Assembly: GCA_038869515.1 (NCBI GenBank)
Contig: JAWCQZ010000002.1
Location: 124,001 to 188,000 of the forward strand
DNA length: 64,000 nucleotides
DNA from: JAWCQZ01 sp038869515 [NCBI: Halobacteria archaeon]
GTDB lineage: Archaea; Halobacteriota; Syntropharchaeia; JACQPP01
Direction: 5' to 3'
Under the pieces are notes generated by a model. That model was not told where the DNA came from. It ran no database searches and saw only the letters and a list, made by a program, of their open reading frames with translations. The position numbers and the translations under genes were made by a program. This document shows, piece by piece, positions 34,775-53,165 of the stretch. Numbering within the stretch: the first letter of the stretch is position 1; every line of letters begins with the position of its first letter.

Positions 34775-35887
34775 ATGCCCGACGGGGAATCCATCATTCT
34801 TTGCCGCGAACGCCCGGGCGAGCCCCCGCCCGATCCCCACCCGGTCTTCGAGAGCCAGGGATACCACTTCATCGGCAACCAGGCGGCGGTGAAGACCTGC
34901 CACTGGACCCGGAACTCCCTCGGCGGCGGCGAGCCCTGCTACAAGCAGAAGTTCTACGGCATCGCGAGCCACCGGTGCGTCCAGATGACGCCGGTGATGG
35001 CGTGCAACCACAGGTGCATGCACTGCTGGCGGCCGATTGACGTGAAGTTCCCGGAAATCCGGTGGGACGACCCGGCCGAAGTCGCGGAGAGCGCGGTCGA
35101 GGAGCAGAAGCGGGTCTTGACCGGCTTCGGCGGGAACCCGAACACCCCGGGGGCGATGTTCGAGGAGGCGATGGCCCCGGCCCACGTCGCCATCTCGCTC
35201 GACGGCGAGCCGACCCTCTACCCGCGCCTGCCCGAACTCATCGAGGAGTACCACCGGCGAGGCATGACCACATTCGTCGTCACCAACGGCTCGCGGCCGG
35301 AGATGGTCCGGGCCATCCGGCCGACCCAGCTCTACTTGAGCATGAACGCGCCCGACGAGGGGACCTACCGACTGGAGGTCAACCCCCACGGCGACACCTG
35401 GCCGCAGTTCCTCGAAACGCTCGACGCCCTCCGGGACCACCCGAGCCGCACGGCGGTCCGCATCACCCTTGTGCGCGGGGTGAACGACCACGGCACGGAG
35501 ATGTATGCGGCCATGCTCAAGCGCGCCCGGCCCTGGTTCGTCGAGGTGAAGTCCTACATGCACGTGGGATACTCGCGGCTGCGGCTGGAGAGGGAGAACA
35601 TGGCGCCGATGGAGCATGTGCGGGCCTTCGCGAAGGCGCTGGAAGGCCATCTGGGGCCGGAGTATAAAATCGAGGACGAGTCGGAAGCGAGCAGGGTGGT
35701 GATGTTGATGCGGGGCGGGGTGGAGCGGTTTTTGGAGATTGAAACACGGTCGGTGCGGCAGGTCTCGCCTTTCAATCGCCCTTCCCGCCAACCGTCCATC
35801 CACCGAGCCCCATCTCTTGAAGGATCCTCCGAATCTCCTGCTCCAGCCGGGCCCGGTCCGCAGACGAAACATCCAGCGCGGCGGTGA
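34775..35887 (+). CDS. taw1: Taw1/TYW1-like 4-demethylwyosine synthase (radical SAM)
   Basis: 370 aa. Builds the tricyclic base of wyosine at G37 of tRNA-Phe from N1-methylguanosine and pyruvate. The radical SAM cluster motif is CNHRCMHCW (C77, C81, C84). Additional conserved Cys include C42 (KTCHWTRNSL) and CYKQKFYGI, where the family binds a second cluster. ISLDGEPTLYPRLPELIEEYHRRGMTTFVVTNG is diagnostic. The last 35 or so residues are an unrelated Pro/Ser/Arg tail that overlaps, antisense, the 3' end of the DUF499 gene by 116 bases. Confidence 0.93.
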   Translation: MPDGESIILCRERPGEPPPDPHPVFESQGYHFIGNQAAVKTCHWTRNSLGGGEPCYKQKFYGIASHRCVQMTPVMACNHRCMHCWRPIDVKFPEIRWDDPAEVAESAVEEQKRVLTGFGGNPNTPGAMFEEAMAPAHVAISLDGEPTLYPRLPELIEEYHRRGMTTFVVTNGSRPEMVRAIRPTQLYLSMNAPDEGTYRLEVNPHGDTWPQFLETLDALRDHPSRTAVRITLVRGVNDHGTEMYAAMLKRARPWFVEVKSYMHVGYSRLRLERENMAPMEHVRAFAKALEGHLGPEYKIEDESEASRVVMLMRGGVERFLEIETRSVRQVSPFNRPSRQPSIHRAPSLEGSSESPAPAGPGPQTKHPARR

Positions 35888-38546
35888 GCGAGAGGCTCAA
35901 ATTCTGGCCCGTCCTGAGCTTCGGCAGCAACTTCGTCCCCAGCCGGTTCCAGACCTCGGGCGGAACCTCCCCGCGGACATGCAGCCGCGCAATCGCAGCC
36001 ACTTCCGTCGGCAATGAGGCCCGGGACGCATCCTCTCCCGGCGACGTCTCCACGGCCACAGTCCCTTCTGGAGACGCGGCACCGGCGACCTCCGGAGCCC
36101 GCTCGGCCTCCGCCCGTCTGCGCAGGGTCTCCACCCTCTGCTTCCGGAGCAGGAAGGTCTGGGCGTCGAAGACGACCTCCTCCTGCGGCAGGGCCTCCTT
36201 GAACCAGACCCGCTCGAACGTGCCATCCGGCCTCTGGCCCGACCCGAGCCCGAACTCGCCACGCTCCACGAACTCGGGGATTCTCTCCCGGAGAACCCGC
36301 TCCGGGTCGGAGAGGCGGGTGAGGGAACCGTTCATGAAGGCCTGCCGGAGTCCCTGGAGGGGCCAGACGCCCGTCTCCTTCAATGAGGGGGGCCAGCTCC
36401 GGTCGAGGTAGCCCGCGCCGATGGTCTCGTTCAGCAACTCCTCGTCCCGGAGAGCCTTCAGGACGCGGCCGGTGAGGGTCGAGGAGCCGCTCGCGTGGCC
36501 CGCGCCCAGGTCAATCTGCCGGAGTTGGTCGGGGTGCTGCGGGTCGTAGAGGAGGATGAAGCGGTAGCTGGCCCACACCTCGTCCTTGACGGCTCCCTCC
36601 GCAGATATCGTGTGTCTCCTCACCTCTTCCCTCTCGGCGGCCTCGAAGTCGCCCCCGATGATGCCCTGCTGGATTTCGGTAGAGACGCGCTTCCAGGCCA
36701 GGGAGGTCTCCGTTTTCTCCCGCAGGTCCCGCCCGGCCTTCTTGACGCACCATATTAGGGAGGCGGGGTGGAGCCTCGGGGACTTCCCGTGCTCGCGGGT
36801 CCACGACGCCAGGGTGGAGGCGAGATTGTCGGCCAGGGCGGTCTCGGGCTCCAGAATGACCAGCGTCAGCCTCGGGGTGTCCGGGGCCGAAGTGGAGTCC
36901 TCGGGGTAGAGGACCAGGGGGACCGTCGCGCCGCGCTCGAACTCCTGCTTCACCGCCTCCCTGGCCTCCTTCCTGATCTCCTCCTCGTCCAGGGAGGCCT
37001 TGCGGTCCCCCACCACCTTCTTCAGGGTGGGCTTGCTCCCGAAGCGGAACCCGTCGGTCCCCACCTTGCGGAGGTAGAACCCCCGCCGCTCCAGGTTCTC
37101 CGCGGCGGTGTCGATGGAGGTGGTGTCCATCCCCGGCTCCCCGATGGCGAAGCGCAGCTCGGGGAGGTGGCCCACCCTGTCCACCATCCCGCCGGAGGAC
37201 TCGAAGAGGATGGCGGCCCCGACCCTGCGGTGGAGGTCCTTCAGGGCCCCCTTCGAGTCCGCGTCCAGGGCGCGGGAGTGGCTGGTGCTGCCCGCGATGT
37301 CGGTCTCGATGGCGTCCTTCAGCCGGGGCTCCCCCAACTGGCCCAGCAGGGTCGCCCGGAACTCGGCCACATCAAGGGGGGCGGAGCCGAGGGTGACGAG
37401 GGGCTCGTTCCGCGCGCGCTGGAACCCCTCCCGGTAGGCCCAGGAGACCCACTGGGCGAGCATGGCGAGGGTTCCCCGGGTCTGCTGGTATTGGGGCAGG
37501 GTCTGCCACTTGCGCTGGAAGACTGAGAGGGTCGCGGGGTGGAAGGGGTAGCACGCCTCGAAGCGTTTGCGGAGGAACTCCCGGGCCCTCGCGTCCGTCA
37601 TGGTGGTGTCCACGTCGGTCCACTCGGGGGGGAGTTGGGCGCGCCGCTCGAAGCACCAGTCGGCGTAAGCCTTCGCCACCGCCGCCCGGGTCTTTTCCGG
37701 TCCCAAATCCTCGAAGAGGCGGCGCCGGACCACCTCGGCGATTTCGCTCTCGTTGGTGACGATGAGTTCCCGCGCCACCCGCCGCACCACCTTGTTGATC
37801 TTCTCCTGCCACTCCAGGTCGAAGGGGGTCATCTCCACCTGGCTCCGGGGCAGGCTCACCATCGCGGCGCAGTTCTTGGCTCCGGTCATGGCGCGGACCA
37901 GGTTGTCGAGGAAGGCGTAGAAGGGCTCGGCCATGTCCCGGTGGCGGTTGAGGAAGTTGAGGACCTCGTCCATGAGGACCAGGACGCAGCCGCCTGCGGC
38001 TTGGAAGAGGTTGCCCAGGGCCTCGGTGCCCGGGGGCGTCGTCTTCGCCTTCGGCCCAAGAGCCGCGACTCCCTTCTCCCCCGCGAGTTGCCTGGCCACG
38101 TCGAGCCACGGGTTCTCCTTTCCGGGCCCGGGGTCCCAGGCGTTTCCGACGAAGACCGCCACCCTGGCCTTCGGAATCTCCTTCACGCCCGCCTCTTTGA
38201 GAAGCGACTTGACCCGCTCGTCCTTCATCGCGACGGCGGGGCTCTTCAGGACGTGGTAGAGGAAGGCGAGGGTGTGGGTCTTGCCTCCGCCGAACTGGGT
38301 GACGAGGGCCATGACCGGGGGCGCGTTCTCGGTCTGGCCTGAGAGGCGCCGGAGCACCATCCCTGCGTGCTCCCGGAGGGCCTGGGTGAAGACCGTGCGG
38401 GCGAAGAACTGGTCGGGCCTCTGGTAGTCGGCGGGGGCCTTCCCGGCCACCACCTGCTCCAGGGCGATGGCGAACTCGTCGGGGTGGAAGGAGCGCCCCT
38501 CGCGGACCTCGGGGCGGGGGGTGACGGCTTTATACCAGGGCTCCAT
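35772..38546 (-). CDS. DUF499-family P-loop ATPase (BrxC/PglY-like)
   Basis: 924 aa, last gene of the defence array. Walker A is QFGGGKTHT (84-92) and Walker B LVLMDEV (188-194), in a typical DUF499 N-terminus (FFARTVFTQALREHAGMVLRRL). The rest is a long alpha/beta and helical region ending in a Pro-rich linker and a domain containing LHVRGEVPPEVWNRLGTKLLPKL. In type 3 BREX and related arrays large ATPases of this kind accompany a DUF1156 methyltransferase. The ATG is three bases after the HEPN stop codon, so it is in the same transcript. Confidence 0.88.
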   Translation of the reverse strand: MEPWYKAVTPRPEVREGRSFHPDEFAIALEQVVAGKAPADYQRPDQFFARTVFTQALREHAGMVLRRLSGQTENAPPVMALVTQFGGGKTHTLAFLYHVLKSPAVAMKDERVKSLLKEAGVKEIPKARVAVFVGNAWDPGPGKENPWLDVARQLAGEKGVAALGPKAKTTPPGTEALGNLFQAAGGCVLVLMDEVLNFLNRHRDMAEPFYAFLDNLVRAMTGAKNCAAMVSLPRSQVEMTPFDLEWQEKINKVVRRVARELIVTNESEIAEVVRRRLFEDLGPEKTRAAVAKAYADWCFERRAQLPPEWTDVDTTMTDARAREFLRKRFEACYPFHPATLSVFQRKWQTLPQYQQTRGTLAMLAQWVSWAYREGFQRARNEPLVTLGSAPLDVAEFRATLLGQLGEPRLKDAIETDIAGSTSHSRALDADSKGALKDLHRRVGAAILFESSGGMVDRVGHLPELRFAIGEPGMDTTSIDTAAENLERRGFYLRKVGTDGFRFGSKPTLKKVVGDRKASLDEEEIRKEAREAVKQEFERGATVPLVLYPEDSTSAPDTPRLTLVILEPETALADNLASTLASWTREHGKSPRLHPASLIWCVKKAGRDLREKTETSLAWKRVSTEIQQGIIGGDFEAAEREEVRRHTISAEGAVKDEVWASYRFILLYDPQHPDQLRQIDLGAGHASGSSTLTGRVLKALRDEELLNETIGAGYLDRSWPPSLKETGVWPLQGLRQAFMNGSLTRLSDPERVLRERIPEFVERGEFGLGSGQRPDGTFERVWFKEALPQEEVVFDAQTFLLRKQRVETLRRRAEAERAPEVAGAASPEGTVAVETSPGEDASRASLPTEVAAIARLHVRGEVPPEVWNRLGTKLLPKLRTGQNLSLSLTAALDVSSADRARLEQEIRRILQEMGLGGWTVGGKGD

Positions 38547-38549
38547 CGG

Positions 38550-38972
38550 CTACCCGCTCCCTGTCCGGAGCAGTTGTCCGGGCAGAAGTTTGCGGACCTC
38601 GGCTCGCACCCGCCGCGCCAGCGCAACGGCGCGCCGGGCCTCCGCGAAGGAGATGTCAGTCCAGCCGGGGTAACGGGCTGCGGTGGCGTAGTGCGTAAGA
38701 CTTCGCGCTTCCTCGCCGGTCAGCCTCACGCTGGCCCGCTTGGGGAGGAGGGAGCTCAGCTGTGCGATGTTGTGGGTTTTGGGAACGTCGCGCTCTCCGA
38801 GGACGAGGAGGGCTTTCAGGTACTTCTCCACGCATTGCTGGGCATGAAAGCACACCGTGTCGGTCGGGCATTTCTCGCCCAGTTTGAGCGCGTGCGAACC
38901 GGCCGTCCAATCGTTCTCGGCCTTCTCGACCCACTCGGCAACGACCGCGAGGAGCCGGTCACGTTCGGGCAT
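38550..38972 (-). CDS. HEPN-domain protein, partner of the MNT nucleotidyltransferase
   Basis: 140 aa. HEPN features: a first helix WVEKAENDWTAGSHAL, the CFHAQQCVEKYLKALLV block, KTHNIAQLSSLL and the RYPGW segment. It belongs to the COG2250-like group that pairs with minimal nucleotidyltransferases; many such HEPN proteins are RNases or toxins silenced by AMPylation. The classical RX4HXY toxin motif of HepT is not evident. It overlaps the end of the MNT gene by 14 bases. Confidence 0.88.
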   Translation of the reverse strand: MPERDRLLAVVAEWVEKAENDWTAGSHALKLGEKCPTDTVCFHAQQCVEKYLKALLVLGERDVPKTHNIAQLSSLLPKRASVRLTGEEARSLTHYATAARYPGWTDISFAEARRAVALARRVRAEVRKLLPGQLLRTGSG

Positions 38973-39288
38973 ACACCACTTTTCCCTTGCGGGCGGCCGG
39001 ATACTCGATGGTCCCGACCACGTCTTTCCTCCAGGCGAATTCCTCGGGCGTGGTCACGATGACGTCCGCCGGCACACGGAACCGGTCGAGAAGGACTCCG
39101 ATTCGGACCGCCAGGTCGCGCTTCGAGCCCTTCACCGGCATCACCACGAGAAGGTCCACGTCGCTGTCGGGTCCCGCGTCGCCCCGCGCGTGGGAGCCGA
39201 ACAGGATGACCCTCTCCGGGTGGAACTTGGCCACGATTCGCCGGACCATCTCATCCACCATCCGCCGGGTCGACCGCTTCCGTGTCAT
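38959..39288 (-). CDS. MNT-type minimal nucleotidyltransferase
   Basis: 109 aa. Polymerase-beta fold with the active-site pattern GSHARG ... DSDVDLLVV (GSx10DxD). In the HEPN/MNT (type VII toxin-antitoxin) modules the MNT protein AMPylates its HEPN partner. The ATG overlaps the TGA of the upstream nuclease gene (ATGA), which ties this pair to the defence operon. Confidence 0.9.
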   Translation of the reverse strand: MTRKRSTRRMVDEMVRRIVAKFHPERVILFGSHARGDAGPDSDVDLLVVMPVKGSKRDLAVRIGVLLDRFRVPADVIVTTPEEFAWRKDVVGTIEYPAARKGKVVYART

Positions 39289-40505
39289 CCCGCTCCTCCG
39301 TCGCTGCGCATCCGCGAGAAGAGGTCCACGCTCGATTGCTTTAACCTTTCCAGGTTGGCGTAGGCCACAGGCCGGTAGTTCTCCCCGGAGGCATAAAGGC
39401 GATACCGGAATCCGTCGGTCAGCAGGATATCGGGCAGACGGACAGGGTCACGGGGCACGATCTTGATGCCTTCCGGCCCGGGGCCTGTCCGAACAAAGTC
39501 GGCGTTGGGGAGCAGCCTCTCCACGTAGTCTTTGGCCTGCCCGAGCGCCACCTCCAGGGCCGAGCCGACCCTCTTGGCCTCGACGACGAACCGGCAGTTC
39601 TCCGGGGTCCTGGGCAGTTTGGAGAAGAGAGCGACATCGATGTCCCTCCACTGGACGGCGATCTGCTCCGTTCTCCACCCCAGAGCCTTCAGAAAGGGGA
39701 CGACCAGATGGACGATGATTTCATCCTCGGCGGGAAGGTCGCCGAACTTCTCCCCGTTCTGGAAGAAGAGCGGCGCCAGGTCTTGCGCTTCGGCCACAAC
39801 AGGTGCCAGCCGTTCGGGGACCCTCTCCAGCTGCGGCTCCACGGGAGGCAATTCCGGGAGGCGGGACGTCTGCCAATCTTGCGGAGGGGATTGGATAATC
39901 CGCGACACGTAGCCCCGTATCTCGGCGTCCTGGATGCGGGACAGCCGGGAGGGATTCGCCCCGAACACAGGCCTGCCGAAATCGTACTCCTTGGGGAGCT
40001 TGAACCACCGCACCCGGCGGCCGTGGCGCAGGTCCCAGCCGTTCACGTCGTCGAACTGCTCCAGATACTGGTAGCCGCTGGCCACGAGTCCAACGGCCAG
40101 AACCCTCGTCTGGCCGCTCCGCAGCAGGATGGCATCGCCGATATCCATCTCGCTTGAGAACCAGCGAAGATAGCGCGCGTCCTCCTCCGGCAGATTGGTT
40201 CCTCCATGACTCCAGGGGCCTGTGCCTCCCGGCCCCAGGAGGGCCACGCCGTGCCGCAGAAACACATCTGCCAGGGGGCGGCCTTTGGGTTCCCCCGCAA
40301 TCTGCCAGATTTCTCGTTGCGCAAGGAGATTATGGCGCGGAACCCTGCCCTTTGCTCGCGCTTCGCGCTCGCTCCGGGCGGGTTCCGCGGGGGCCGACCC
40401 CCGGGGACCCCGTTGTGCGGGGGGAGGCCCCGGGGGTGGACCTGCCGCTTTCCGCGCGGGCGGAGCCCGCGCGGAAAGCGGCCTATGTTCAATGGGTGGT
40501 TCCAT
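39285..40505 (-). CDS. Putative nuclease: PUA/EVE-like reader plus PD-(D/E)XK domain
   Basis: 406 aa. Residues 115-170 (SSEMDIGDAILLRSGQTRVLAVGLVASGYQY ... RRVRWFKLP) have the layout of EVE/PUA-like domains that recognise modified bases in McrBC-type and related enzymes. Residues 258-330 form an HsdR_N-like PD-(D/E)XK nuclease: E262, DID 288-290 and VEAK 308-311. Its ATG has a GGAGG site in the end of the methyltransferase gene. Residues 6-60 are encoded by repeat copy C, an in-frame insertion of Pro/Ala/Arg-rich sequence. The reader assignment is by pattern; the nuclease fold is better supported. Confidence 0.7.
   Translation of the reverse strand: MEPPIEHRPLSARAPPARKAAGPPPGPPPAQRGPRGSAPAEPARSEREARAKGRVPRHNLLAQREIWQIAGEPKGRPLADVFLRHGVALLGPGGTGPWSHGGTNLPEEDARYLRWFSSEMDIGDAILLRSGQTRVLAVGLVASGYQYLEQFDDVNGWDLRHGRRVRWFKLPKEYDFGRPVFGANPSRLSRIQDAEIRGYVSRIIQSPPQDWQTSRLPELPPVEPQLERVPERLAPVVAEAQDLAPLFFQNGEKFGDLPAEDEIIVHLVVPFLKALGWRTEQIAVQWRDIDVALFSKLPRTPENCRFVVEAKRVGSALEVALGQAKDYVERLLPNADFVRTGPGPEGIKIVPRDPVRLPDILLTDGFRYRLYASGENYRPVAYANLERLKQSSVDLFSRMRSDGGAG
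40326..40490 (-). repeat. Dispersed palindromic repeat, copy C (full length), inside a coding region
   Basis: About 165 bases made of three consecutive hairpins on the minus strand: one with CCGCGCGGGC arms, one with CCCCGGGG / CCCCGGGGG arms, and the GGAACCC/GGGTTCC core shared with copies A and B. The first two hairpins match copy D at the right window edge. It begins at GAACATAGG, five codons into the nuclease gene, and leaves the frame open. Confidence 0.8.
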
Positions 40506-40508
40506 GGA

Positions 40509-43500
40509 CTACCTCCTCGGCACCGCCAGCAACATGGCATCCAGCAACCGCTTCTCCTCGCTCTCCTTCGGGTAGAGCGCCGAGAGCGCGTTCGCCAGCC
40601 GCAGGAACTCCGGCCCCCGCGCCGTCTCCTGGGCGACAAGTTCCCGCAGGGCCGCCGCCTGCCCGCCGGCCTGGAAGAGCATGGCGGCGTGGACACGGTC
40701 CAGGGTTGTGGCCTCGCGATGGACCGGGGCCTCCCCCTCTTCTGCGACTTCGCCTTTTTTCCGCGCCCGGCCGGTCTTCTTCTCCTGCGCCTTGGCGGTC
40801 TCCTCCTCGGGGAAGAGTTTGAGTTGGACCCCGCGCCTGCGGGCTACGGCCTCGGCGGCGGCCTCTGCCCCTTCCCGCCCGAAGAGCCGTTCCGCCCGCT
40901 CGGCCACCGGCAGGAGCCTCACGACCCCCTTGTCGGTCTCCACGATGCGGCCCTCCCAGGCGTCAAGATGGACCCCGAGGGGCTGGGTGAACCGGCGGAC
41001 GATGTCGAAGGGGAGGGAGTAGCCCCTCTTTTTCTTCCCGCCGCCTTCTTCTTCGTCCTCCTCCTCATCCCCCTCTCCGTCAGCCTCGCCATCGGCATCA
41101 TTGGCCTTGACATCGGTGGCTTGGAGCGTCCAGAGGAAGAGCGCGGTCAGCCGGGCGTCCTCTTCCAGGGCCCCCACCTGGCTGTTGCGGGCCCGCGCCT
41201 CGGCGGTGCCGAGAATCTGGCCGAGGGCGGTGCGGCCGACGACCTCCCAGACCTTTTCCAGGTATTCGGCCAGGGCGACTTCTCGCCCTTCGGCGGTTTC
41301 GACCTTCTTGTAGCGGCTGAAAATCTCCAGTGCGGGGCCGATGCAGGCGAAGACGAGGTCGGCGCCGCGGATGCCCTCGGACTGGAGGCGTTCCATCCAG
41401 TCTCCGACGCGCTTTGGAAGTTCGCGGAGGACTTCGGCCCAGTCGCCCACGGGGGCGTCGTCGGGTCGCGGGCGGCAGATGAGATGGACGCTGGTCGCCA
41501 GAGCGGCGGAATCGCGGGCGCGCAGGCGGGAGCCCATCTCGGTCGCAATCGGCCACGACCCCGTGATGGTCCAGCCGCCGCGAATCATGCCGGAAAGGAG
41601 CGCCTCCCAGCCTTCGGTGGTCTTGTGGGCAAACACCACCGCGCCCACGCCGTCCTCCCGCAGCACCCGCCGGCCCTCGGCAAAGGCCCTGGCCATCGCC
41701 TCCTCGTAAAAGGCCTTGTCTTTGGGGCGGCCGTCGGTGGTCTCGGAGCGCTCGTTCTGGACCGCCTCGCCCGCTTTGGGCGTCAGGGGATTGGCGGGAT
41801 TGAAGGGGTCGCGCAGGAGCGGATGGCCCGGCAGGGTGCGCTTGAGCCAGACGAAGAAGAAGTCAGAGAGGTCGGCGTAGGGCACCGCGTCGTAGTAGGG
41901 TGGGTCGGTGAACCACACCGTCGCCGCGGCATCCGGCAACGGATGCTCCGTCGCATCGGCAGGTTGGACTTGGCCAGTCGCCGAACCAGGCCACGCCGCG
42001 GCGACTTTGGCGACCCAGTCGAGTGCGCCTTCGTAGCCACCGGTAGCATCAGAAAACGGATTGCCTTCACAGAAGTCCCAGCATATCGGCAATGCTTGGC
42101 GGGACATCGTATTGGTTATCGTCTCACGGGATGTATCAAGGCGACATACAGTGCTCAGCCGATCTCCGCACCGGTTCACCACCACCGCCAACCCGTCCCT
42201 CAGCGTCCCTGCCTGCGCCGCGTCCCGCGACGCGGCAGGCAGGTCTGTGCTGAATTCCCGCACCAGCCGCGCGAGCGTCACCAGCGCCACCTTCTGCCGC
42301 GCCGTGAAGAGGTCGCCCCAGTGGAGCATCCCATAACGCTGGACCCGAAAGCCCAGGGTTCCAATAGGCGGCAGCGGCTCATCCGGCACCGGGCACAACC
42401 CCTTCTTGCCGCCGCGCTCCCACTCATCGAGAATCGCCTCGAGCCGCTGCTGCGCCTTCCAGACGGCCTGGTAGTCGCGCTCCGCGGGCAGCCGGTAGTG
42501 CCGCCCCTGCTGGCCGGGCTTGAGCGTCACCACCGCGAGCAGCCGCGCCCCGCCGGTGCGCTGGCCCTTCGCGTTGAAGACCACGTCGGCCCCGCCGCGC
42601 TGCGCGGCGAGTTGCGCCCGGACCCGCTCCGGAGGGAGCACCGTGCCGCAGGCGAGGCAGGTCGCCTTCGCCCTCGCCACCGTCCCGCCGGGCACCTCCG
42701 CGTCCTTCTTCGGCTCGAATATCTCGAACACCGCCTCCGGCGGCCCCTTCTTCGGCCTCTCAACCTTCCACCTCAAGGCGCGCTTTCGCTCCGCCTTCCT
42801 GCAGAGCCAGAACGACCTGGCGAGCGGGATTTCGGCCCCGCAGTTGGGCGCCTCGCAGCGCACGGTCCGGGCCCAGAGGTAGGCGATGGGCGTGGCGCCG
42901 GCGGGGTCACGGGGATAGAGGTCCGCCAGCTCCTTCTCCGCCTGCGCCTTGATTTCGGCCCCGACCTTCCGCAACTCCTCGGCCATCTCCGGCCCGTGGC
43001 GCGGGATGTCCTCCAGCATGACCTTGAGAATCAAGCAGGCGACCGGGTTCAGGTCGCTGGCGAAGGCATCGCACCCGAGGCGGAGCGCCTCCAGAGGAAT
43101 GGAGCCGCCACCGGCGAAGGGGTCCACCACCAGCGGCGGCTCCTCTCCGTTGGCTGCCTTCACGAGGGCCCGGGCGTTGTTGATGTAGCCCGTGTTGGAG
43201 GAGTTGTCCCAGTTGGCGAAGTCGGCGATGAACTTCAGGAGGGCCTTCCGCAGTTCTTCGTCTGTTTTCGGAGGCTCGGCAAGGCCCGCGACCGACTTTC
43301 GGGCCTTCTCTTTGAACTCCTTCGGGCAGTTCGGGTCGCACGGGTCGGGCAGCAACAGCCCCATGAGAACCGCCCGGCAGGCGGCGAGGGGCCGACGGGC
43401 CCACCAGAGGTGGAGGGTGGAGGGGTGGCCGTGGCGGATGGACTTCTCCCGGGCGGAGTGGCGGCTGACCTCGGCGATGGGGAAGTCCGCTTCGATGAGG

Positions 43501-43523: not shown

Positions 43524-43541
43524 CGGCCTGCCTGTTCTACC

Positions 43542-44321
43542 TCAGGCTTTCGATACACCTCGCTTGCGGTCTTCGTGTTTTTGGATTGCCAAGGAATCTG
43601 CTGACCCTGCTGTGGCTCCTTGCTGGACTGTCCCTTTGTCTATCAGCATCAAGGTCAGGTTCACAGCTCCACACACCGCAAGTGCTTCCTGTTGCGTAAC
43701 GTCGTTTCGAAGTGAGTGATGCGCAGGGTTGCCAAACAATCCCATGAGGCCACTGCAGATGAAGAACGCCCCCTTTTGCTCGTCCGGGTCTTGGCTGACG
43801 ACAATGAGTGCCTCGTTCGGATTTGGATTCAAAGCTTTCGCTACCAGCCCCGCCCGTGTCTTCTCCTGAGCCTTTCCCAGTCCTGTCCGCGCTCGCAAAC
43901 GATTTTCCAATACGGTTATTGCCTCCCTCACAGGACTATCGAGGAACTTCTTCTTCCTTAAATAGCCTGAGCATCTACTTCGTAGTTCCTTGTCTGTGAG
44001 CAGACATTCGATGGCCGAAGCGACCGGGTCCGGCTGACTGATCCCTCGTCCAGTGGAACTGCTTGGTTTCGGGCTATGGGACTCCGATGCGGGGGTTTCC
44101 AAAGCGGCTCCAACTTGCTGCTGAACAGCAGGGTCGAGTCTCGCAAGTGGTCTTGCGATACCAATGCCTGCCTGACGGGCCAACCTCAGAAGCGCAGCCT
44201 GTGAAGAAATTCCCAACTTCGACGAGAGTCTACTTACGCGCTCGCGCACGGACTTTACAGACTTCCGTTTCTTCTTCGCAATCTTCGCAAGGAGTTCTTG
44301 GTCCAGCCGAGTTCTGCCCAT
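43542..44321 (-). CDS. TIGR02391/Ymh (HEPN-like) family protein with N-terminal HTH-like region
   Basis: 259 aa. The C-terminal half (about 130-240) reads LRSRCSGYLRKKKFLDSPVREAITVLENRLRAR, then GLMGLFGNPAHHSLRND and EALAVCGAVNLTLMLID, the TIGR02391/Ymh pattern (HEPN superfamily, often in abortive-infection contexts). The N-terminus (LAKIAKKKRKSVKSVRERVSRLSSKLGISSQAALLRLARQAGI) is lysine-rich and may form an HTH. Its DNA is visibly lower in G+C than its neighbours, suggesting recent acquisition. Confidence 0.7.
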   Translation of the reverse strand: MGRTRLDQELLAKIAKKKRKSVKSVRERVSRLSSKLGISSQAALLRLARQAGIGIARPLARLDPAVQQQVGAALETPASESHSPKPSSSTGRGISQPDPVASAIECLLTDKELRSRCSGYLRKKKFLDSPVREAITVLENRLRARTGLGKAQEKTRAGLVAKALNPNPNEALIVVSQDPDEQKGAFFICSGLMGLFGNPAHHSLRNDVTQQEALAVCGAVNLTLMLIDKGTVQQGATAGSADSLAIQKHEDRKRGVSKA

Positions 44322-44325
44322 GGAG

Positions 44326-44535
44326 TCATCGCCTCTTCTCCTTGTGCGGAAGGTGTCGCCATACCCGACTGACGCGGTGTATGTCCACCCTCAACAGTTC
44401 CCTTACCTGATTTCGACTCAGGCCAGCTCGTTTACCTTCGATTATAAAAGTATCTCGGAGCAGTTCCAGAATAGCATCTAACTTCTGTGTAGCGGGATCG
44501 GCCGGTCGTCTTGCCTTACTTGTTCTTTTCGCCAT
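44326..44535 (-). CDS. Small HTH-like protein 2 of the defence array
   Basis: 69 aa. Basic N-terminus (AKRTSKARRPADP), then AILELLRDTFIIEGKRAGLSRNQVRELLRVDIHRVSRVWRHL, which fits a helix-turn-helix (SRNQVRELLRVDIHRVSRVWR). It overlaps the preceding small gene by 20 bases and precedes the Ymh gene by four. Similar length and layout to its neighbour suggest they are paralogues acting together as regulators; that is inference. Confidence 0.6.
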   Translation of the reverse strand: MAKRTSKARRPADPATQKLDAILELLRDTFIIEGKRAGLSRNQVRELLRVDIHRVSRVWRHLPHKEKRR

Positions 44536-44731
44536 GACGTGCCCTCCCCTTACTATGTTTACCTGCCTTTAACCCGAGATGTCTTACAATCACCGTGACG
44601 GTGTTCATGTCACACCGAGCGATTGCCCTAATCCGATGCGGCGAAATACCGGCAAGCGCAAGCTGCGTGATCAGAATCGTCCTAAGAAATTCGGTTTGCT
44701 TGTTCTCAGAAGAACGACGTGCTTTCTTCAT
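44516..44731 (-). CDS. Small HTH-like protein 1 of the defence array
   Basis: 71 aa. Helical TEFLRTILITQLALAGISPHRIRAIARCDMNTVTVIVRHLGL resembles a helix-turn-helix (SPHRIRAIARCDMNTVTVIVR) of resolvase/sigma-like type. A basic tail follows. A strong TATTTAAAT box lies 27 bases before the ATG, so the downstream half of the array has its own promoter. G+C is low here. Confidence 0.6.
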   Translation of the reverse strand: MKKARRSSENKQTEFLRTILITQLALAGISPHRIRAIARCDMNTVTVIVRHLGLKAGKHSKGRARHGEKNK

Positions 44732-44753
44732 CCAATACCACCTAAATGCGAGG

Positions 44754-44762
44754 TATTTAAAT
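44754..44762 (-). promoter_or_regulatory. Internal promoter of the defence array
   Basis: TATTTAAAT (minus strand) is centred 27 bases before the ATG at 44731, within the 163-base gap after the helicase gene. It is the clearest promoter in the array and would drive the HTH-like genes, Ymh, methyltransferase, nuclease, MNT, HEPN and DUF499 genes. Confidence 0.7.
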
Positions 44763-44894
44763 GTAACGCAGTATTGCCGGACTTCCAGGTCCAGAGGCCG
44801 TCTTCCGGGCTGTTGACCCGGCGCCCAAGATTCCGAGAGGAAGTCTCTATTTTTCCCTTCGCAAGTTGCTTGATTGATGGCGTCTCGTTCATTT

Positions 44895-47800
44895 TCATTT
44901 CAGCACGCTCTTCTCCCCATTTTGCCTCAAAGTGGATAGCGAAAGAGTGTAGTGCTGTATCCTCTGCACCGGCTGCCAGGGGCAGGCCGCCGGGTCCCTG
45001 AATGCATTCACCCTCGGCTTCTCCGTCCCGCAGTCCGTCACCACGTAGAGCCAGTAGCAGTCCCTCCGGTCCTCGGCGACCCTCCGCTCGTTGGGGGTCA
45101 GAACGATGGTCCCGTCGCTGGCGGAGAGCCCCTTGACCTCGATGAGCCGAAGGTCGCCGTTGCGCGAATCGAGGCTGGTGATGTCGTATCCAAGGTTCTT
45201 CTCGTGAACATCCTGCACGATGCGGCCTTGAGCGGTCTCGTGCTCGATGGCCGTCTCCATGGCGATGCGCTCGACCTCCGCGTCCGGGCGCAGGTTCCGT
45301 ATCTCGGGCCTGTCGCGCTCGGGGTGGGGGAGGACCAGGACGCTGGTGAGCCGCTCGATGTTCTGGAGTTTGAGGCCCCGCTGGCGCTTCAGTTCTTCCC
45401 GCCGCCGGTCCCGGCGGGCCAGGAGCTTGGCGTGGGCATCCAGTGCCTTGGCGAGGTTCTGGTCCGCCATGGGCACTCCTCTCTTCTTTTCCTCTTCGAA
45501 GCGTCCTATCTTCTCGTCCTCGCGGGCGATGAGTTCGGTGAGGGCGATGTCCACGTGGCGGGCCACCCGGTCCAGCTCCTCCAACCGCTCCTTCTTGACC
45601 TTTTCGAGGAAGGGCTGCAACGCCGAGTCGTGGAGGAACGCCATGGGTTCCGGCAGGGTGGCCACCGGCGGCAGGCTGGCGGGCGCGGGGGCGGGCAGCA
45701 TGTCGCCCAGGATTCCGGGCTCGCGGAGCACGGGGTCGGCCACCTCGTCCAGCTCGACGGCGAAGAGGTGCTCGTGGATGACGCGGTCGAGGCCGTCGGC
45801 CACCTGGGCGCGGTAGAAGTCGATTCTGGCGGGCCGGGTGTGGGCCAGGGAGTGGACGCAGGCTCCCTGGCCGAACATCGGCCGGGCCGTTTCCACGGCG
45901 TGACGCCGCAGCGCCTCGAAGAGGGGGTGGCCGGGGGTCACCCACTCGAACTTCTTCTCCTCGGCGGTCTTCCGGTCGGTGGTGAAACGGGGGTATCGGT
46001 TCGCCAGCGGCGGGAGCCTCCATGTGGAGTCGGTCTCGTAGCGGCGCAGGGCGGGTGGCGTGGCGCCCGGGTCGAAGGTGTGGCGGTAGGCCCCCACCGG
46101 CTTGAGGGACATCCCCGCCACCCCCCCGGTCTCCACGATGAACCGGGAGACGGTCTCGGGGACCAGCCTCCGCTCCTGGGCGCGGGCCTTCCGCTCCACG
46201 AGCATGGCGAGATTGAGGCTCCGGGTCGCAAGCCCCTCCAGGGCGTTCTGGCAGATGTTGCGGAAGCGGTCCTCGCTCACGTTCCGGAGGACCCGCTCCT
46301 CCAGGTCGGCTTTTCCAATTTTGCCCGCGTAGTAGTCGCGGAGGATTCGCTCGATGTGGGCCGGGGGGATGGCCTCGCCCACCACGTTGAAGACCGCGTC
46401 GTCCTTCAGGGCGTCCCGAATCCCCTGGAGCTTCTCCAGCAGCGTCTCCAGGACATGGCCCTCGATGGTGTTGACCGCCACGAAGTTGAAGATGAGGCAG
46501 GGCTCCTTCTGGCCGTAGCGGTGGATGCGGCCCATGCGCTGCTCCAAGCGGTTGGGGTTCCAGGGGATGTCGTAGTTGAACATGAGGTTGCAGCAGTGGA
46601 GGTTGATGCCCTCTCCGGCGGCCTCGGTGGCGACCAGAATCTGGATTTTGCCGTCCCAGAACTGCTGCTCGGTCCAGATGCGGGTGCCCTCTTCGTCCCG
46701 GGAGCCGGGCTTCATGCTCCCGTGGATGAATCCCACTCGGAAGTTCCATTCTTGCAGGCGCTCGACGAGGTATTTCAGGGTGTCTTTGAACTCGGTGAAA
46801 ATCAGGAGGCGCTTGTCGGGGTTGTCGAAGAACCCTTGCTCTCGGAGCAGTTCCTTCAACTTGTTGAGTTTGGCCTCCACTTCTGCGTCGATGACCTTCT
46901 GGGCTTGCTTGGCCAACTCCCGGAGGGCCGAAACTTCCTCCAAGACCTCCTCTTTGTTCCGGGCCAGGGTGACCGCCTGGGCTTTCTCCTCCAGACGCTC
47001 CCGCTCCTCTTCCTCCATCTCCTCCAGCTCTTCTTCGCCCGGAATCTCGAAGGGGCCGTTCTTCGCCACGTCTTCGGCCAGCTGGAGTCTCTTCTCCAGC
47101 AGGTTGGCCCGTTTTTCGAGGGAACTCTTGAGGGCGAAGGTGCTGGAAGCGAGGCGTCTCTGGAAGAGGGCCATGAGAAATCCGAGAGCCCGCGCCCGGG
47201 GGTCGGTGGCTTCCCGGGCGGCGGCCAGGGCGCTCTGGTCCTTCACGAACTTGGTGACGGCGTCGTAGAGCGCAAACTCGTCCCCGTCGATGGAGAAGCG
47301 GACCGTGCTGGGGATTCGCTTGGTGAAGATTTTCTCGGTCTGCCAGGTGCCGTCAGGCTGGCGCTGGGGGAAGTAGACCATCGCCTCCTTCAGACGGCGG
47401 AGGTAGAAGGGGGCCCGGCGCCGTGCCATCGCCTCCTGAATCGATTTCACGTCGGCGTAGGCGTCCTGGTCCAGGAGCCGGAGAAAGAGGGTGAAGTTCT
47501 GGGGGTCCCCCCGGTGGGGCGTGGCCGTGAGCAGGAGGATGTTGTGGGTGGTGTCGCGCAGGAGTTCCCCCAGCCGGTATCGAAGGCTTTTGCGCTCCTC
47601 CGAGGAGGCGGACATGCGGTGGGCCTCGTCGATGATGACCAGGTCCCACTGGGATTGGCGGAGGCCCGGAAGCACGTCCTCTTTTTTGGCCAGATCGAGG
47701 GAGGTGATGACCTGCGGATGCTCCCGCCAGGGGTTGATGCCGAACTGGGTTCGCAACTCGGCCCCCTTGATGACGAGGAACTTCTCGTCGAACTTCTCCT

Positions 47801-48296
47801 TCAGTTCGCGCTGCCACTGGAAGGTGAGGTTCGCGGGGCACACGATGAGGGTCTTCTCGACCAGCCCCCGGAGTTTCAGTTCGCGGAGGAGGAGGCCCGC
47901 CATGATGGTCTTGCCTGCGCCCGCGTCGTCGGCGAGGAGGAACTTGACGACCGGGAGCTTCAGGAGGTAGTCGTAGACCGCCTCCAGTTGGTGGGGGAGG
48001 GGGTCCACCCGGGAGATCGAGAGGCCGAAGTAGGGGTCGAACTCGTAGGCGATTCCGAGGGCGTGGGCCTGGAGCCCCAGGCGGAGGAGGGAACCGTCAC
48101 CCTTGTAGGTCGGAATCGCGGACCGGACGGTGAGTCGCGAGAGTTCCTTCTCGGTGAGGCGGACCCTTCGGAATGTCTCTGAGCGAACTCCAACGAGCCC
48201 CAGGGCCCACACCCCGTTTCCGTCGGTCTGGGTGGTCTCCACCCTCATGGGTTCGTTGAAGAGGTCGCCTTCCAGAATGTCTCCGGGTTTGATCAT
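44895..48296 (-). CDS. SNF2-like superfamily 2 helicase with C-terminal DUF3883
   Basis: 1133 aa from the ATG at 48296; a GTG at 48341 in frame is possible. Helicase motifs: LLADDAGAGKT (120-130), IDEAH (222-226), LLLTATPHRG, LLIFTEFKDT, and the SNF2-type motifs V-VI ILVATEAAGEGINLHCCNLMFNYDIPWNPNRLEQRMGRIHRYGQ. The C-terminal DUF3883 region (YDITSLDSRNGDLRLIEVKG, about 1020-1100) is a PD-(D/E)XK-like fold. This architecture is seen in BREX BrxHII-like and DISARM DrmD-like proteins, which translocate on DNA. It is followed by a 163-base gap. Confidence 0.92.
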   Translation of the reverse strand: MIKPGDILEGDLFNEPMRVETTQTDGNGVWALGLVGVRSETFRRVRLTEKELSRLTVRSAIPTYKGDGSLLRLGLQAHALGIAYEFDPYFGLSISRVDPLPHQLEAVYDYLLKLPVVKFLLADDAGAGKTIMAGLLLRELKLRGLVEKTLIVCPANLTFQWQRELKEKFDEKFLVIKGAELRTQFGINPWREHPQVITSLDLAKKEDVLPGLRQSQWDLVIIDEAHRMSASSEERKSLRYRLGELLRDTTHNILLLTATPHRGDPQNFTLFLRLLDQDAYADVKSIQEAMARRRAPFYLRRLKEAMVYFPQRQPDGTWQTEKIFTKRIPSTVRFSIDGDEFALYDAVTKFVKDQSALAAAREATDPRARALGFLMALFQRRLASSTFALKSSLEKRANLLEKRLQLAEDVAKNGPFEIPGEEELEEMEEEERERLEEKAQAVTLARNKEEVLEEVSALRELAKQAQKVIDAEVEAKLNKLKELLREQGFFDNPDKRLLIFTEFKDTLKYLVERLQEWNFRVGFIHGSMKPGSRDEEGTRIWTEQQFWDGKIQILVATEAAGEGINLHCCNLMFNYDIPWNPNRLEQRMGRIHRYGQKEPCLIFNFVAVNTIEGHVLETLLEKLQGIRDALKDDAVFNVVGEAIPPAHIERILRDYYAGKIGKADLEERVLRNVSEDRFRNICQNALEGLATRSLNLAMLVERKARAQERRLVPETVSRFIVETGGVAGMSLKPVGAYRHTFDPGATPPALRRYETDSTWRLPPLANRYPRFTTDRKTAEEKKFEWVTPGHPLFEALRRHAVETARPMFGQGACVHSLAHTRPARIDFYRAQVADGLDRVIHEHLFAVELDEVADPVLREPGILGDMLPAPAPASLPPVATLPEPMAFLHDSALQPFLEKVKKERLEELDRVARHVDIALTELIAREDEKIGRFEEEKKRGVPMADQNLAKALDAHAKLLARRDRRREELKRQRGLKLQNIERLTSVLVLPHPERDRPEIRNLRPDAEVERIAMETAIEHETAQGRIVQDVHEKNLGYDITSLDSRNGDLRLIEVKGLSASDGTIVLTPNERRVAEDRRDCYWLYVVTDCGTEKPRVNAFRDPAACPWQPVQRIQHYTLSLSTLRQNGEKSVLK

Positions 48297-48363
48297 GGTC
48301 TCGATGCAGCGGTCCCCCACGAGGCGTTCAAAGCAACACACAGGGGGCTAAAAGAATTTGCGT

Positions 48364-49809
48364 TCATATCTTCGGCTCCCTGGGCACGACCACGTTCTCA
48401 AACTTCTTCCGGAACAGGTCGAACCCGAGCGTGTGGACGGGGATGACCTCCTTCGGCTCGATTTCCCGGACCGCCTGGAAAATCTCCTCCTGCCCCGCGT
48501 GGCCAGAGCAGTGGGCGTACTCGTATTTCAGGCCGAAGGTGTCCAGCCAGTTCTTGAATCGGGCGAAGTCGATGGCCATCTCCTCGGTGAAGGGCTCGCT
48601 GGAGGAGTGGATGAAGAGCCCGCCCCGGGGCTTGAGGTCGATGAGGTTCTGGAGGCTCCAGAAATCCAGATAGACCATGACCTCGCCCAGGTGCTCCCTG
48701 AGCCAGTCGGGCCTCTTAGCGTTCGGGTAGTGGATGATTTCTCGCTCGGGCCACTTGGCCGCGTAGTCCCTGTCGTCGAAGGAGCCGCTCTTCTGCCTCT
48801 CCACGAAGATGAGGAGGTTCTCGTCCCGGGGCGGGATGCCCACCTCTTTCTGGAGCTGGTCGAGGTAGTAGGCCATCTTGGTCGGAATCACCAGCTTGCG
48901 GCCGGTCGCCTTGGCGACCTGGTGGAATGTCCTGAATCGGTCGAAGTCCCGCTGCATGAAGTCGAGGAACACGGGGCTCTTCGGGTGGGCCTTCACCAGC
49001 TCGGCGCATCTCTTCAGGACCTCACCCTCGTTCGCCATCTTGTGGCCCGGGTTGCCCCCCATCATGCGGACGACCGCCTCCTCCTCGGGGTTTTCGGGGC
49101 CCACCTGGGTGCCCTCGATGAGGAGGGTGTCCACCTCCTCCTCCGCCACCGTCTCTACGAAGGCCCTCCCTTTGGCTCCCCGCCAGCCGTGGAACCGGAT
49201 GTCCCCCGTGTAGGCGACGGTCCCCTCGTCGGCGTGGAGGATGAAGCCGGCGGCCCCGAGGGTGGAGTGGTCCACCTCGAAGGGCTTGCACTCGACCTCC
49301 TTGAAGCTGGCGATGTCCTGCCAGGGGCGTTCCGGGTCCTCCTCGCCTCGCTTCGAGGGGGTGTATTGACCGAGGTTCTTCGGTTTGTAGGTGAGCAGTT
49401 CCCTGGAGAGCCCCGCCTGGGAGGTCTCCTGGTAAGTCGCCAGCAGTTTGCGGGCCAGTGGGGAGGAGAAGATGGGGATTCGGGGGTCCAGGAACGGGAT
49501 GGCCCCTACGTGGTCGATGTGGGGGTGGCTCACCAGCACCCCGGCCACCGCGGGCTCGGCGGGCTTCAGGTCGGTGGTCTTGAGGAGGTCGTGCCGGTAG
49601 AGCCCTTCGACCCGGGGCAGGATTCCCAGGTCGAGGTAGTCCTGGAGGCCCGCGGAGGCGCGGGGCTGGAGGAACTCGGCGTAGAACTTGCCGAACTTGG
49701 AGAAGGACATGCCGAAGTCGAGGAGGAACTTCGCGTCGGCGGACTCCAGCAGGATTTTGTTGCCGCCGATTTCGTTGGCGCCGCCGTAGAAGGTGATGTT
49801 GGTCTTCAT
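48364..49809 (-). CDS. Metallo-beta-lactamase-fold nuclease, RNase J-like
   Basis: 481 aa. The start ITFYGGANEIGGNKILLES ... FLLDFGMSF is RNase J-like. Metal ligands: HPHIDH (HxHxDH) in VSHPHIDHVGAIPFL, GDIRFHG, and a C-terminal VIPVHTLGFD. The central region has SFxPLAR/LLIEGTQVG and a beta-CASP-like segment. Probably an exonuclease acting on RNA or DNA. The ATG overlaps the NYN stop (ATGA). I used 49809 rather than the upstream ATG at 49851, which lies inside the NYN gene. Confidence 0.88.
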   Translation of the reverse strand: MKTNITFYGGANEIGGNKILLESADAKFLLDFGMSFSKFGKFYAEFLQPRASAGLQDYLDLGILPRVEGLYRHDLLKTTDLKPAEPAVAGVLVSHPHIDHVGAIPFLDPRIPIFSSPLARKLLATYQETSQAGLSRELLTYKPKNLGQYTPSKRGEEDPERPWQDIASFKEVECKPFEVDHSTLGAAGFILHADEGTVAYTGDIRFHGWRGAKGRAFVETVAEEEVDTLLIEGTQVGPENPEEEAVVRMMGGNPGHKMANEGEVLKRCAELVKAHPKSPVFLDFMQRDFDRFRTFHQVAKATGRKLVIPTKMAYYLDQLQKEVGIPPRDENLLIFVERQKSGSFDDRDYAAKWPEREIIHYPNAKRPDWLREHLGEVMVYLDFWSLQNLIDLKPRGGLFIHSSSEPFTEEMAIDFARFKNWLDTFGLKYEYAHCSGHAGQEEIFQAVREIEPKEVIPVHTLGFDLFRKKFENVVVPREPKI

Positions 49810-50327
49810 TGCCTGCTTCTCTTGGGCCGATAATCCCGCGGGTCGATGCATGCGTCGTATAGGGTGCGACCTATCGGAATCCAGTCGGTCTTGTCGACGC
49901 CCCTGAGGTTGCGGTAAGTCGGGCTCTGGGGATAGGCGCTCGCGATCTTGATCCAGCAGTTCCGCTCGCGCGCGATTGCGCGGATTTCAACGGCCACCTC
50001 GGAGAGGTCCTGGTCCTGGCTGAACAGGAGCGCGACATCGTATTCATTGCGGTAGGCCATGCGGACCACATCCAGGGCGAGGCGGACGTCCACGCCCTTC
50101 TCCTCCCCGACAAGGAACGTGTGTTCGGTGCCGTCGGGGAGAGTGACCCGCCGGTTCCGGTAGCGAAGGGGCCGGGAGAATGTCCAGACCCCCTGCCGTC
50201 CCAGGTGCGCCAACTTGTGAGAAGAGATAACCCCGCCCGAGGCCTCGCGGCGGGTCGAGCGGGGGGCAAGTGTTGCTGAGTTGGCTTTGGCCGAAATAAG
50301 TCTTTCGGTGGACGCAACCTTACCCAC
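49806..50327 (-). CDS. NYN-domain nuclease, apparently lacking its N-terminus
   Basis: Up to 173 aa in this frame. The C-terminal 115 residues are a clear NYN (LabA/DUF88-like) domain: GEEKGVDVRLALDVVRMAYRNEYDVALLFSQDQDLSEVAVEI holds the second and third acidic clusters. The usual first strand with its catalytic Asp (xxFxDGxNL) is absent from this and the neighbouring frames. The first 55 residues look unlike any NYN protein, so the gene may be a 5'-truncated remnant. It overlaps the end of the phosphatase gene by 8 bases. Confidence 0.65.
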   Translation of the reverse strand: MGKVASTERLISAKANSATLAPRSTRREASGGVISSHKLAHLGRQGVWTFSRPLRYRNRRVTLPDGTEHTFLVGEEKGVDVRLALDVVRMAYRNEYDVALLFSQDQDLSEVAVEIRAIARERNCWIKIASAYPQSPTYRNLRGVDKTDWIPIGRTLYDACIDPRDYRPKRSRQ

Positions 50328-53105: not shown

Positions 53106-53127
53106 CAACCACCCTCGCCGTGGGTAT

Positions 53128-53150: not shown

Positions 53151-53165
53151 TCTTTATCATTTCCG

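What the first reader, a model, noticed from the sequence alone, without database searches (positions are those of the whole stretch)
35772..50327. Eleven-gene unidirectional defence array: type 3 BREX-like core without PglZ, joined to MBL, NYN, HEPN and MNT modules
Seen: minus-strand genes, many overlapping or a few bases apart, in the order NYN fragment, RNase J-like MBL, SNF2-DUF3883 helicase, two tiny HTH-like proteins, Ymh, DUF1156 methyltransferase, PUA/EVE-like-PD-(D/E)XK nuclease, MNT, HEPN, DUF499 ATPase. Known: type 3 BREX uses a DUF1156 methyltransferase, a helicase and a large ATPase together with PglZ, BrxA and BrxF; DISARM class 1 uses an SNF2-DUF3883-like DrmD. None of the missing BREX proteins, nor a DUF1998 helicase, is seen here. 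Inference: a distinct modification-based system in which the methyltransferase marks self DNA, helicase and ATPase survey, and the nuclease with the HEPN modules acts on invaders.
Basis: partly seen in the sequence, partly recalled or inferred. Interest (0 to 1): 0.85.

Follow-up and report, generated by a model that had tools for sequence, protein, structure and literature searches.

The report
Known antiviral operon carrying borrowed modules
This archaeal gene array is a known three-gene antiviral system (Hma, also called a BREX-related system) with extra defence and toxin genes lodged between its core genes, and its relatives suggest how such extra genes pile up.

Summary
The genes are real, in the stated range and order. 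Helicase, methyltransferase and DUF499 ATPase are HmaA, HmaB and HmaC (E 2e-164, 1e-122, 3e-93), the published Hma system, redefined in 2026 as DUF499-centred BREX-related Type-1. It normally lacks PglZ, BrxA and BrxF.

The other genes are best read as embedded modules. In the window plus 33 bacterial relatives, slot 1 (Hel–MTase) is filled in 26 of 31 loci and slot 2 (MTase–DUF499) in 23 of 32, with contents differing even between cores 91% identical. A PUA/EVE-like (unconfirmed)–PD-(D/E)XK gene is the commonest slot-2 family. MNT–HEPN pairs recur but are exchanged. The NYN is a truncated HEC-09, a family named for embedding in Hma. MBL and Ymh did not recur.

New lead: slots of 8 relatives hold 15 broken-off core-gene ends, always ends of the two bordering genes (decoys 0), three times fused start-to-end in frame. 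Modules may stack by merging of Hma operons. The window has no such stub. Embedding itself is already known; archaeal relatives could not be sampled.

The parts
35772..38546 (-). HmaC: DUF499 AAA+ ATPase (core gene 3)
   Evidence: PADLOC HmaC E 2.7e-93; PF04465 4.6e-14; NCBIfam DUF499_antiphage 3.9e-29, below its cut-off; Walker A GGGKT and VLVLMDE
38550..38972 (-). HEPN (PF05168) putative RNase toxin, slot 2
   Evidence: PF05168 7.8e-24; RDVPKTH = R-x5-H; no PADLOC match; family common genome-wide, 65 of 94 genomes of one phylum
38959..39288 (-). MNT nucleotidyltransferase, putative antitoxin, slot 2
   Evidence: PF01909 1.1e-13; PADLOC PDC-S09 5.8e-12; MntA 2.3e-8, below cut-off; GSx10DxD
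39285..40505 (-). PUA/EVE-like (unconfirmed) N-domain plus PD-(D/E)XK nuclease ('PUA-REase'), slot 2
   Evidence: DVALF...VVEAK motif; HSDR_N weak in 5 of 7 homologues; PDC-S02 1.2e-5 over the N-domain only; 50-57% identical homologues in slot 2 of L004, L053, L054, L058
40509..43523 (-). HmaB: DUF1156 DNA methyltransferase (core gene 2)
   Evidence: PADLOC HmaB 1.4e-122; PF06634 4.6e-24; DPFAGGG and DPPY motifs, no PCQ
43542..44321 (-). Ymh (PF09509) protein, HEPN-like by published classification, slot 1
   Evidence: PF09509 2.5e-12; TIGR02391 4.4e-8, below cut-off; Ymh counted as a HEPN family in PMC3710099 (passages); no plasmid relative
44326..44535 (-). small HTH-like protein hth2, slot 1
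   Evidence: resembles hth1, 36% over 39 aa; weak HTH_31 E 0.08
44516..44731 (-). small HTH-like protein hth1, slot 1
   Evidence: resembles hth2; no significant family match
44754..44761 (-). putative archaeal TATA box (TTTAAATA) ending 22 nt before the hth1 ATG
   Evidence: sequence; TTTAAA at 44756-44761; function inferred
44895..48341 (-). HmaA: SNF2 helicase with C-terminal DUF3883/NOV_C nuclease domain (core gene 1)
   Evidence: PADLOC HmaA 2.4e-164; PF13020 5.2e-22; GAGKT, DEAH, QRMGRIHRYGQ and GYD...IEVK motifs
48364..49851 (-). RNase J-like metallo-beta-lactamase, flanking gene, membership doubtful
   Evidence: PF12706 9.2e-11; best PDB match 2az4, E 3.8e-23; no hit in 24 Hma loci
49806..50327 (-). 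truncated NYN, remnant of an HEC-09 type module
   Evidence: PF01936 5.5e-8, profile 56-125 of 145 only; PADLOC HEC-09 9.6e-9; no N-terminal part in any frame

Best explanation
It is an Hma operon (= DUF499-centred BREX-related Type-1 system) in an archaeon, with independent defence and toxin-antitoxin modules embedded in its two between-gene slots. Inferred working: HmaB marks host DNA, probably as N6-methyladenine. HmaC (an ORC/Cdc6-like AAA+ ATPase) and HmaA (SNF2 helicase with a PD-(D/E)XK-type C-domain) survey DNA, and HmaA cuts DNA that lacks the mark. The embedded PUA-REase probably cuts DNA carrying unusual modified bases that would otherwise escape. The MNT-HEPN pair is probably a toxin-antitoxin whose HEPN RNase stops growth if the first lines fail or are inhibited. 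Ymh with its two small HTH-like partners may be a second such unit. Shown: gene content, order, intact motifs, recurrence of the core order, turnover of slot content in relatives. Inferred: every biochemical step.
For: Core identity. Intact motifs in the window. Across the relatives' core proteins held without stops: Walker A in 31 of 31 DUF499, [DNS]PPY in 30 of 31 MTases (the miss, L004, is a contig-truncated piece), helicase REase motif in 18 of 27 (the 9 misses are L066, L068, L069, L084, L087-L090, L092). In the 34 loci used, order Hel-MTase-DUF499 on one strand in 29 of the 29 that hold all three; one distant locus not used, L091, has weak hits in the order DUF499-MTase-Hel. Slots filled 26 of 31 and 23 of 32. 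Cargo is defence/TA-like: 37 of 40 slot proteins scanned (of 77 listed) had a Pfam match, e.g. Mrr+UvrD, Fic, AAA_21+DUF4276 (HEC-01A/B), DarT+ADP-ribosylglycohydrolase, GmrSD, SIR2, DUF433+DUF5615, MNT+HEPN. PUA-REase: in 392 genomes of two phyla the matches of at least 50% identity (G036:C28, G038, G124, a remnant in G092) all abut DUF499. Embedding in Hma is documented in print (passages).
Against: No archaeal relative was sampled: no genome is held for the window, and the only genome scan used weak patterns and returned 4 bacterial loci. The PUA/EVE assignment is unproven: AlphaFold mean pLDDT 44, no supporting Pfam match, no PADLOC match for the L053 homologue. The 2021 paper calls HmaB an m5C enzyme, the 2026 paper an N6 enzyme; motifs favour the latter. 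The tight overlaps in the window's slot 2, and its lack of stubs, could also mean a co-evolved unit. No activity was tested.
Confidence: 0.85

Rival explanations
1. A single distinct eleven-gene defence system in which MBL, NYN, Ymh, HEPN, MNT and nuclease are obligate parts.
For: One strand, short gaps and overlaps. T. barophilus plasmid pTBMP1 also has an NYN gene near an RNase J-like MBL.
Against: Slot genes turn over between close cores in relatives; MBL, Ymh and the small genes gave no hit in 24 relatives' loci at E<1e-4; NYN truncated; a putative promoter inside the array; the T. barophilus NYN shows no similarity to the window's at E<0.1.
Confidence: 0.05
2. A degenerate or incomplete type 3 BREX, or type 3 BR, whose pglZ was lost or lies elsewhere.
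For: Homology of all three core proteins to type 3 BREX parts, described in PMC12839542; BrxHII 7e-92 for the helicase.
Against: HmaB scores 408 bits against 14 for PglXI, HmaC 312 against 13 for BrxC. The helicase keeps its nuclease domain, the Type-1 BR trait; no PglZ among 30 proteins scanned. The rest of the genome is unavailable.
Confidence: 0.06
3. PUA-REase is a fourth, semi-permanent component of this Hma clade rather than passing cargo.
For: Slot 2 in the window and 4 relatives plus remnant L081, never slot 1. In those four relatives it is 50-57% identical to the window's, near the 61-64% of their DUF499, while MNT is 36-47% (60% over one 30-aa piece in L053) and HEPN 31%.
Against: Absent from most slot 2s of the loci; weaker relatives stand alone (L079, L080; viral contig L082); the frame appears broken in L058 and the gene is deleted to a remnant in L081.
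Confidence: 0.3

Closest known systems
Hma (PADLOC; Payne et al. 2021, PMC8565338, passages seen)
   Same: helicase-methylase-ATPase operon; all three proteins match its models strongly; other systems such as Septu are reported with or inside it (passages)
   Different: extra slot modules; PUA-REase has only a weak partial PADLOC match
DUF499-centred BR Type-1 (PMC12839542; sections 29, 30, 31, 33, 34 and part 1 of 35 read, plus passages)
   Same: helicase with C-terminal REase, DUF1156 MTase, DUF499 ATPase, no PglZ, no DUF3780; auxiliary PD-(D/E)XK and HEPN/MNT modules reported
   Different: no HEPN fused to DUF499 here; HEPN is a separate MNT-paired gene
HEC/PDC embedded candidates (Payne et al. 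2024 preprint, not seen; cited in passages of PMC12988326 and PMC12255303)
   Same: defence genes lodged inside Hma; NYN = HEC-09, MNT like PDC-S09
   Different: Ymh, HEPN and the nuclease half of PUA-REase have no match in the PADLOC models
EVE + COG1743-DUF499-SNF2 association in archaea (PMC7641849, passages seen)
   Same: modified-base reader beside the same core in archaea
   Different: there a standalone EVE protein; here a reader-like domain fused to a nuclease, domain identity unconfirmed
MNT-HEPN toxin-antitoxin (PMC3710099, passages seen)
   Same: MNT 5' of HEPN, overlapping, motifs present
   Different: embedded in a restriction-like operon

Membership tests
Hma / BR Type-1 | SNF2 helicase (HmaA) | tested here: met
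   E 2.4e-164
Hma / BR Type-1 | DUF1156 methyltransferase (HmaB) | tested here: met
Hma / BR Type-1 | DUF499 ATPase (HmaC) | tested here: met
Hma / BR Type-1 | active C-terminal REase on the helicase | tested here: met
   NOV_C/DUF3883 and GYD...IEVK motif; activity itself not tested
Hma / BR Type-1 | N-terminal TUDOR, C-terminal RRM on the ATPase, C-terminal HTH triad on the MTase | not tested
   no fold of these proteins was made
BR Type-2 | DUF3780 and HKD nuclease on the helicase | tested here: not met
   neither among Pfam matches of the array proteins
BR Type-3 | PglZ and iSTAND genes | tested here: not met
   no PglZ among 30 window proteins scanned; iSTAND not searched specifically; genome not held
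BREX type 3 | PglZ, BrxA, BrxF | tested here: not met
   absent from PADLOC matches of the 10 array proteins scanned (for the helicase the best 25 of 69 families were shown) and no PglZ in Pfam; genome not held
DISARM class 1 | DrmA/DrmB with DUF1998 beside DrmD | tested here: not met
   helicase is DrmD-like (1.2e-118) but HmaA scores higher; no DUF1998 match among the proteins
MNT-HEPN toxin-antitoxin | MNT 5' of HEPN, GSx10DxD and R-x4-6-H | tested here: met
MNT-HEPN toxin-antitoxin | toxicity neutralised by nucleotidylation | not testable with these tools
   needs an assay
type IV (modification-dependent) restriction | modified-base reader fused to a nuclease | tested here: inconclusive
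   nuclease motif present; reader domain unsupported by Pfam or fold

The most novel reading that the evidence does not exclude
Hma operons act as stacking platforms. Modules arrive with the ends of the bordering core genes, by recombination between or collapse of neighbouring Hma operons. This leaves in-frame fused stubs (start of the downstream core gene joined to the end of the upstream one) that keep the polycistron continuous. Slot 2 of this clade has acquired a semi-resident reader-nuclease that covers modified DNA which the core would miss.
Probability: 0.45. Interest if true: 0.6.

Novelty: new member of a known kind. Interest (0 to 1): 0.42.

Why it matters
It moves a suspected new system into a known one and separates core from cargo, so experiments can target the right genes. 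It adds a recurrent reader-like nuclease that PADLOC models barely cover. The stub pattern in relatives, if it holds in larger sets, would give a physical trace of how defence genes become embedded inside other defence operons, and a way to find module borders from sequence alone.

Tried and rejected
Whole-genome search of the window's own genome: none held. Close relatives of the DUF499 protein in viral contigs: none. PUA-REase in 50,697 phage records: none; in plasmids: 2 Cupriavidus records at 29%, context not examined; a second viral-contig scan only re-found the contig of L082. PDB search with the PUA-REase profile gave only E 0.86, and with HmaB nothing. Ymh in plasmids: no match; HEPN in plasmids: 1 partial match. 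Core-gene stubs in the window: none in its slots; one weak internal minus-strand hit far away, E 0.026, taken as chance. A shared NYN-MBL module with T. barophilus: the MBLs match (34%) but the NYNs do not. That the stubs are chance: reversed core proteins gave 6 hits, none a same-strand terminal piece in a slot. That HEPN in the slot is specific: rejected, PF05168 occurs in 65 of 94 genomes.

Rows dropped: from the fetched core loci I left out of the 34 L064 and L093-L096 (DUF499 only) and L091 (weak, split hits in another gene order). Slot ORFs were picked by a simple rule (length and GC3), so the 66 proteins of 80 aa or more in 46 clusters may include false ORFs, and they cover only the 24 loci. 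L001, L070 and L071 have near-identical slot-1 genes and are not independent. In one search hits within 60 bp of the matching intact core gene were dropped by the script, and I counted the two adjoining L056 pieces as one stub.

Full report
What is there. Eleven minus-strand genes lie in the stated range and order. The window looks archaeal: an archaeal-type primase large subunit, RNA polymerase large subunits, a TYW1-like wyosine enzyme, an HFX_2341-type regulator and a tRNA match stretched over 153 bp, read here as intron-bearing. G+C is mostly 67-73% outside and 61-67% over 42-56 kb, compatible with an acquired island.

What the core is. PADLOC scores the helicase as HmaA (E 2.4e-164), the DUF1156 methyltransferase as HmaB (1.4e-122) and the DUF499 ATPase as HmaC (2.7e-93), far above any BREX model for the last two. 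Hma was named in 2021 as a putative helicase–methylase–ATPase system found in 26 phyla (PMC8565338, passages). A 2026 paper renames such systems DUF499-centred BREX-related and divides them in three; it also cites an experimental study confirming a phage-defence role of HmaA (PMC12839542; sections 29-31, 33, 34 and part 1 of 35 read, plus passages). The window fits Type-1: the helicase keeps a C-terminal DUF3883 nuclease domain with GYD…IEVK, and there is no DUF3780 and no PglZ among the proteins scanned. So the missing PglZ, BrxA and BrxF are normal for the family. The methyltransferase has DPFAGGG and DPPY and no PCQ, which favours an adenine (or N4-cytosine) enzyme (motif rules recalled); the 2021 paper calls it m5C.

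What the other genes are. Relatives of the window's DUF499 were sought in four bacterial phyla: 20 of 95 genomes at E<=0.001, and 13 of 297, 1 of 286 and 2 of 124 at E<=1e-100; DNA around them was fetched. With the four loci this made 33 relatives, 34 loci with the window; six fetched core loci were left out (see Tried and rejected). In all 29 loci that hold the three core genes the order is Hel–MTase–DUF499 on one strand; L091, distant and left out, has weak hits in the order DUF499–MTase–Hel. The gap Hel–MTase (slot 1) exceeds 300 bp in 26 of 31 loci and MTase–DUF499 (slot 2) in 23 of 32; some empty slots leave the core genes overlapping by 1 to 8 bases. Forty of 77 slot ORFs of relatives were scanned with Pfam: Mrr nuclease with UvrD, Fic, AAA_21 with DUF4276, DUF4062, HerA, DUF3800, DUF433 with DUF5615, DUF2283, DUF4258, NYN, YhcG, AAA with subtilase, 23S IVP, ORF6N, DarT with ADP-ribosylglycohydrolase, HEPN, DUF3644, an OLD-like ATPase with UvrD, GmrSD–Schlafen, SIR2, PDDEXK_3 and MNT–HEPN among others; 3 of the 40 gave no match at E<=0.001. 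The AAA_21 pair of L052 is HEC-01A/B (1.8e-161 and 3e-66) and the window's NYN matches HEC-09 (9.6e-9), while the DUF4276 protein of L003 and the PUA-REase of L053 match no PADLOC model. PMC12988326 (passages) expands HEC as Hma-embedded candidates from a 2024 preprint that I could not read. Six annotated plasmid regions of Thermus and Planktothrix show Fic or a small ORF in its place, HicAB or HicB–RelE, two HTH genes, PIN genes, an AAA ATPase, HsdR_N and Uma2 nucleases between or beside the same core genes; in the Thermus plasmids the helicase lies on the other strand.

Turnover. L053 and L054 have DUF499 proteins 91% identical but share 0 of 8 slot-1 families and 1 of 3 in slot 2; L052 and L059 (87%) share none in the same slot; L052 and L054 (85%) share 2 of 8 in slot 1. 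Against this, L070 and L071 (94%) share everything. So extra genes are mostly passing cargo in these relatives; the window itself has no near relative to compare.

PUA-REase. Homologues 50-57% identical sit in slot 2 of L004, L053, L054 and L058, and a deleted remnant in L081. Searching 392 genomes of two phyla directly with the protein found the same slot-2 places (G038, G036, G124, G092) plus two weaker ones (30% and 38%) with no core gene nearby, so the link to slot 2 is not an effect of where I looked, within those phyla. A relative also lies on a viral contig near a recombinase-like ORF. The D…EAK motif and weak HSDR_N matches support a nuclease. The reader domain is a reading by eye; no profile confirms it and the fold failed.

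MNT–HEPN. The window's pair keeps GSx10DxD and R-x5-H. In L061 a related pair (47% and 31%) is in slot 1. In L004 slot 2 holds an MNT with a HepT-type (PF01934) toxin, a different HEPN family. The position recurs while the toxin is exchanged. PF05168 HEPN is common (65 of 94 genomes of one phylum).

Core-gene stubs. With core genes masked, core proteins held without stops were searched against all 34 loci at E<=0.05. In 113 kb of slots there are 15 same-strand pieces that begin within 10 residues of a core gene's start or end within 25 of its end: in slot 1 twelve, all MTase starts or helicase ends; in slot 2 three, a DUF499 start and two MTase ends. They occur in 8 loci (L004, L052, L053, L056, L081, L084, L089, L092), six of them from one phylum, one from each of two others. 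The weakest are E 0.001 and 0.004. One other slot hit was internal (L059, E 0.013). In 250 kb of flanks there were 8 hits, 7 internal and one terminal: in L003 a helicase start, followed by a helicase end that I read by eye. Reversed decoys gave 6 hits, none of the slot-terminal kind. In L004, L084 and L089 a start stub is fused directly and in frame to an end stub, as expected if two neighbouring operons, or an operon and an incoming relative, were joined by a deletion or one illegitimate crossover that kept the reading frame. In L004 this junction separates PUA-REase from MNT–HEPN. L001-L004 are titled metagenome assemblies and the rest are unnamed, so assembly error is possible, but the stubs are only about 41-96% identical to their best-matching core. 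My searches of print (listings) showed no report of it, but the 2024 preprint is unread.

Flanking genes. The RNase J-like MBL has relatives beside an N-6 methylase gene, near Avs2, VapC and restriction genes, and near an NYN–restriction gene pair on three of four thermophile plasmids looked at, so it may itself be defence-related, but it was not found in 24 Hma loci.

Verdict. A known antiviral core with embedded modules: ordinary in kind, with one recurrent nuclease barely covered by PADLOC and an unexpected trace, in relatives, of how modules may accumulate.

Noticed in passing
L004:2004-2189; L084:7842-8075; L089:13176-13442 (minus strand): Start of the downstream core gene fused in frame to the end of the upstream one, between two cargo modules, forming a small chimeric ORF.
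   Followed up: partly
window 52974-53945 +: HFX_2341-like (CARF-type, recalled) regulator, DUF6293 C-terminal domain, diverging from the island.
   Followed up: no
window 35772-35887: TYW1-like wyosine gene (34775-35887, +) overlaps the end of DUF499 convergently by 116 bp, perhaps the island's insertion border.
   Followed up: no
window 8531-8683 -: Rfam finds a tRNA stretched over 153 bp, probably intron-bearing, that ARAGORN misses.
   Followed up: no
L105:4279-7536 (Thermococcus barophilus pTBMP1): NYN gene, type I restriction gene and RNase J-like MBL in a row, echoing the NYN-MBL pair beside the window's Hma, though the NYNs are not similar.
   Followed up: partly
L098-L101 (Thermus thermophilus plasmids): Similar Hma backbone with HicAB in two and HicB plus RelE in two, and Fic in one but a small ORF in three: a natural set for watching module exchange.
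   Followed up: no
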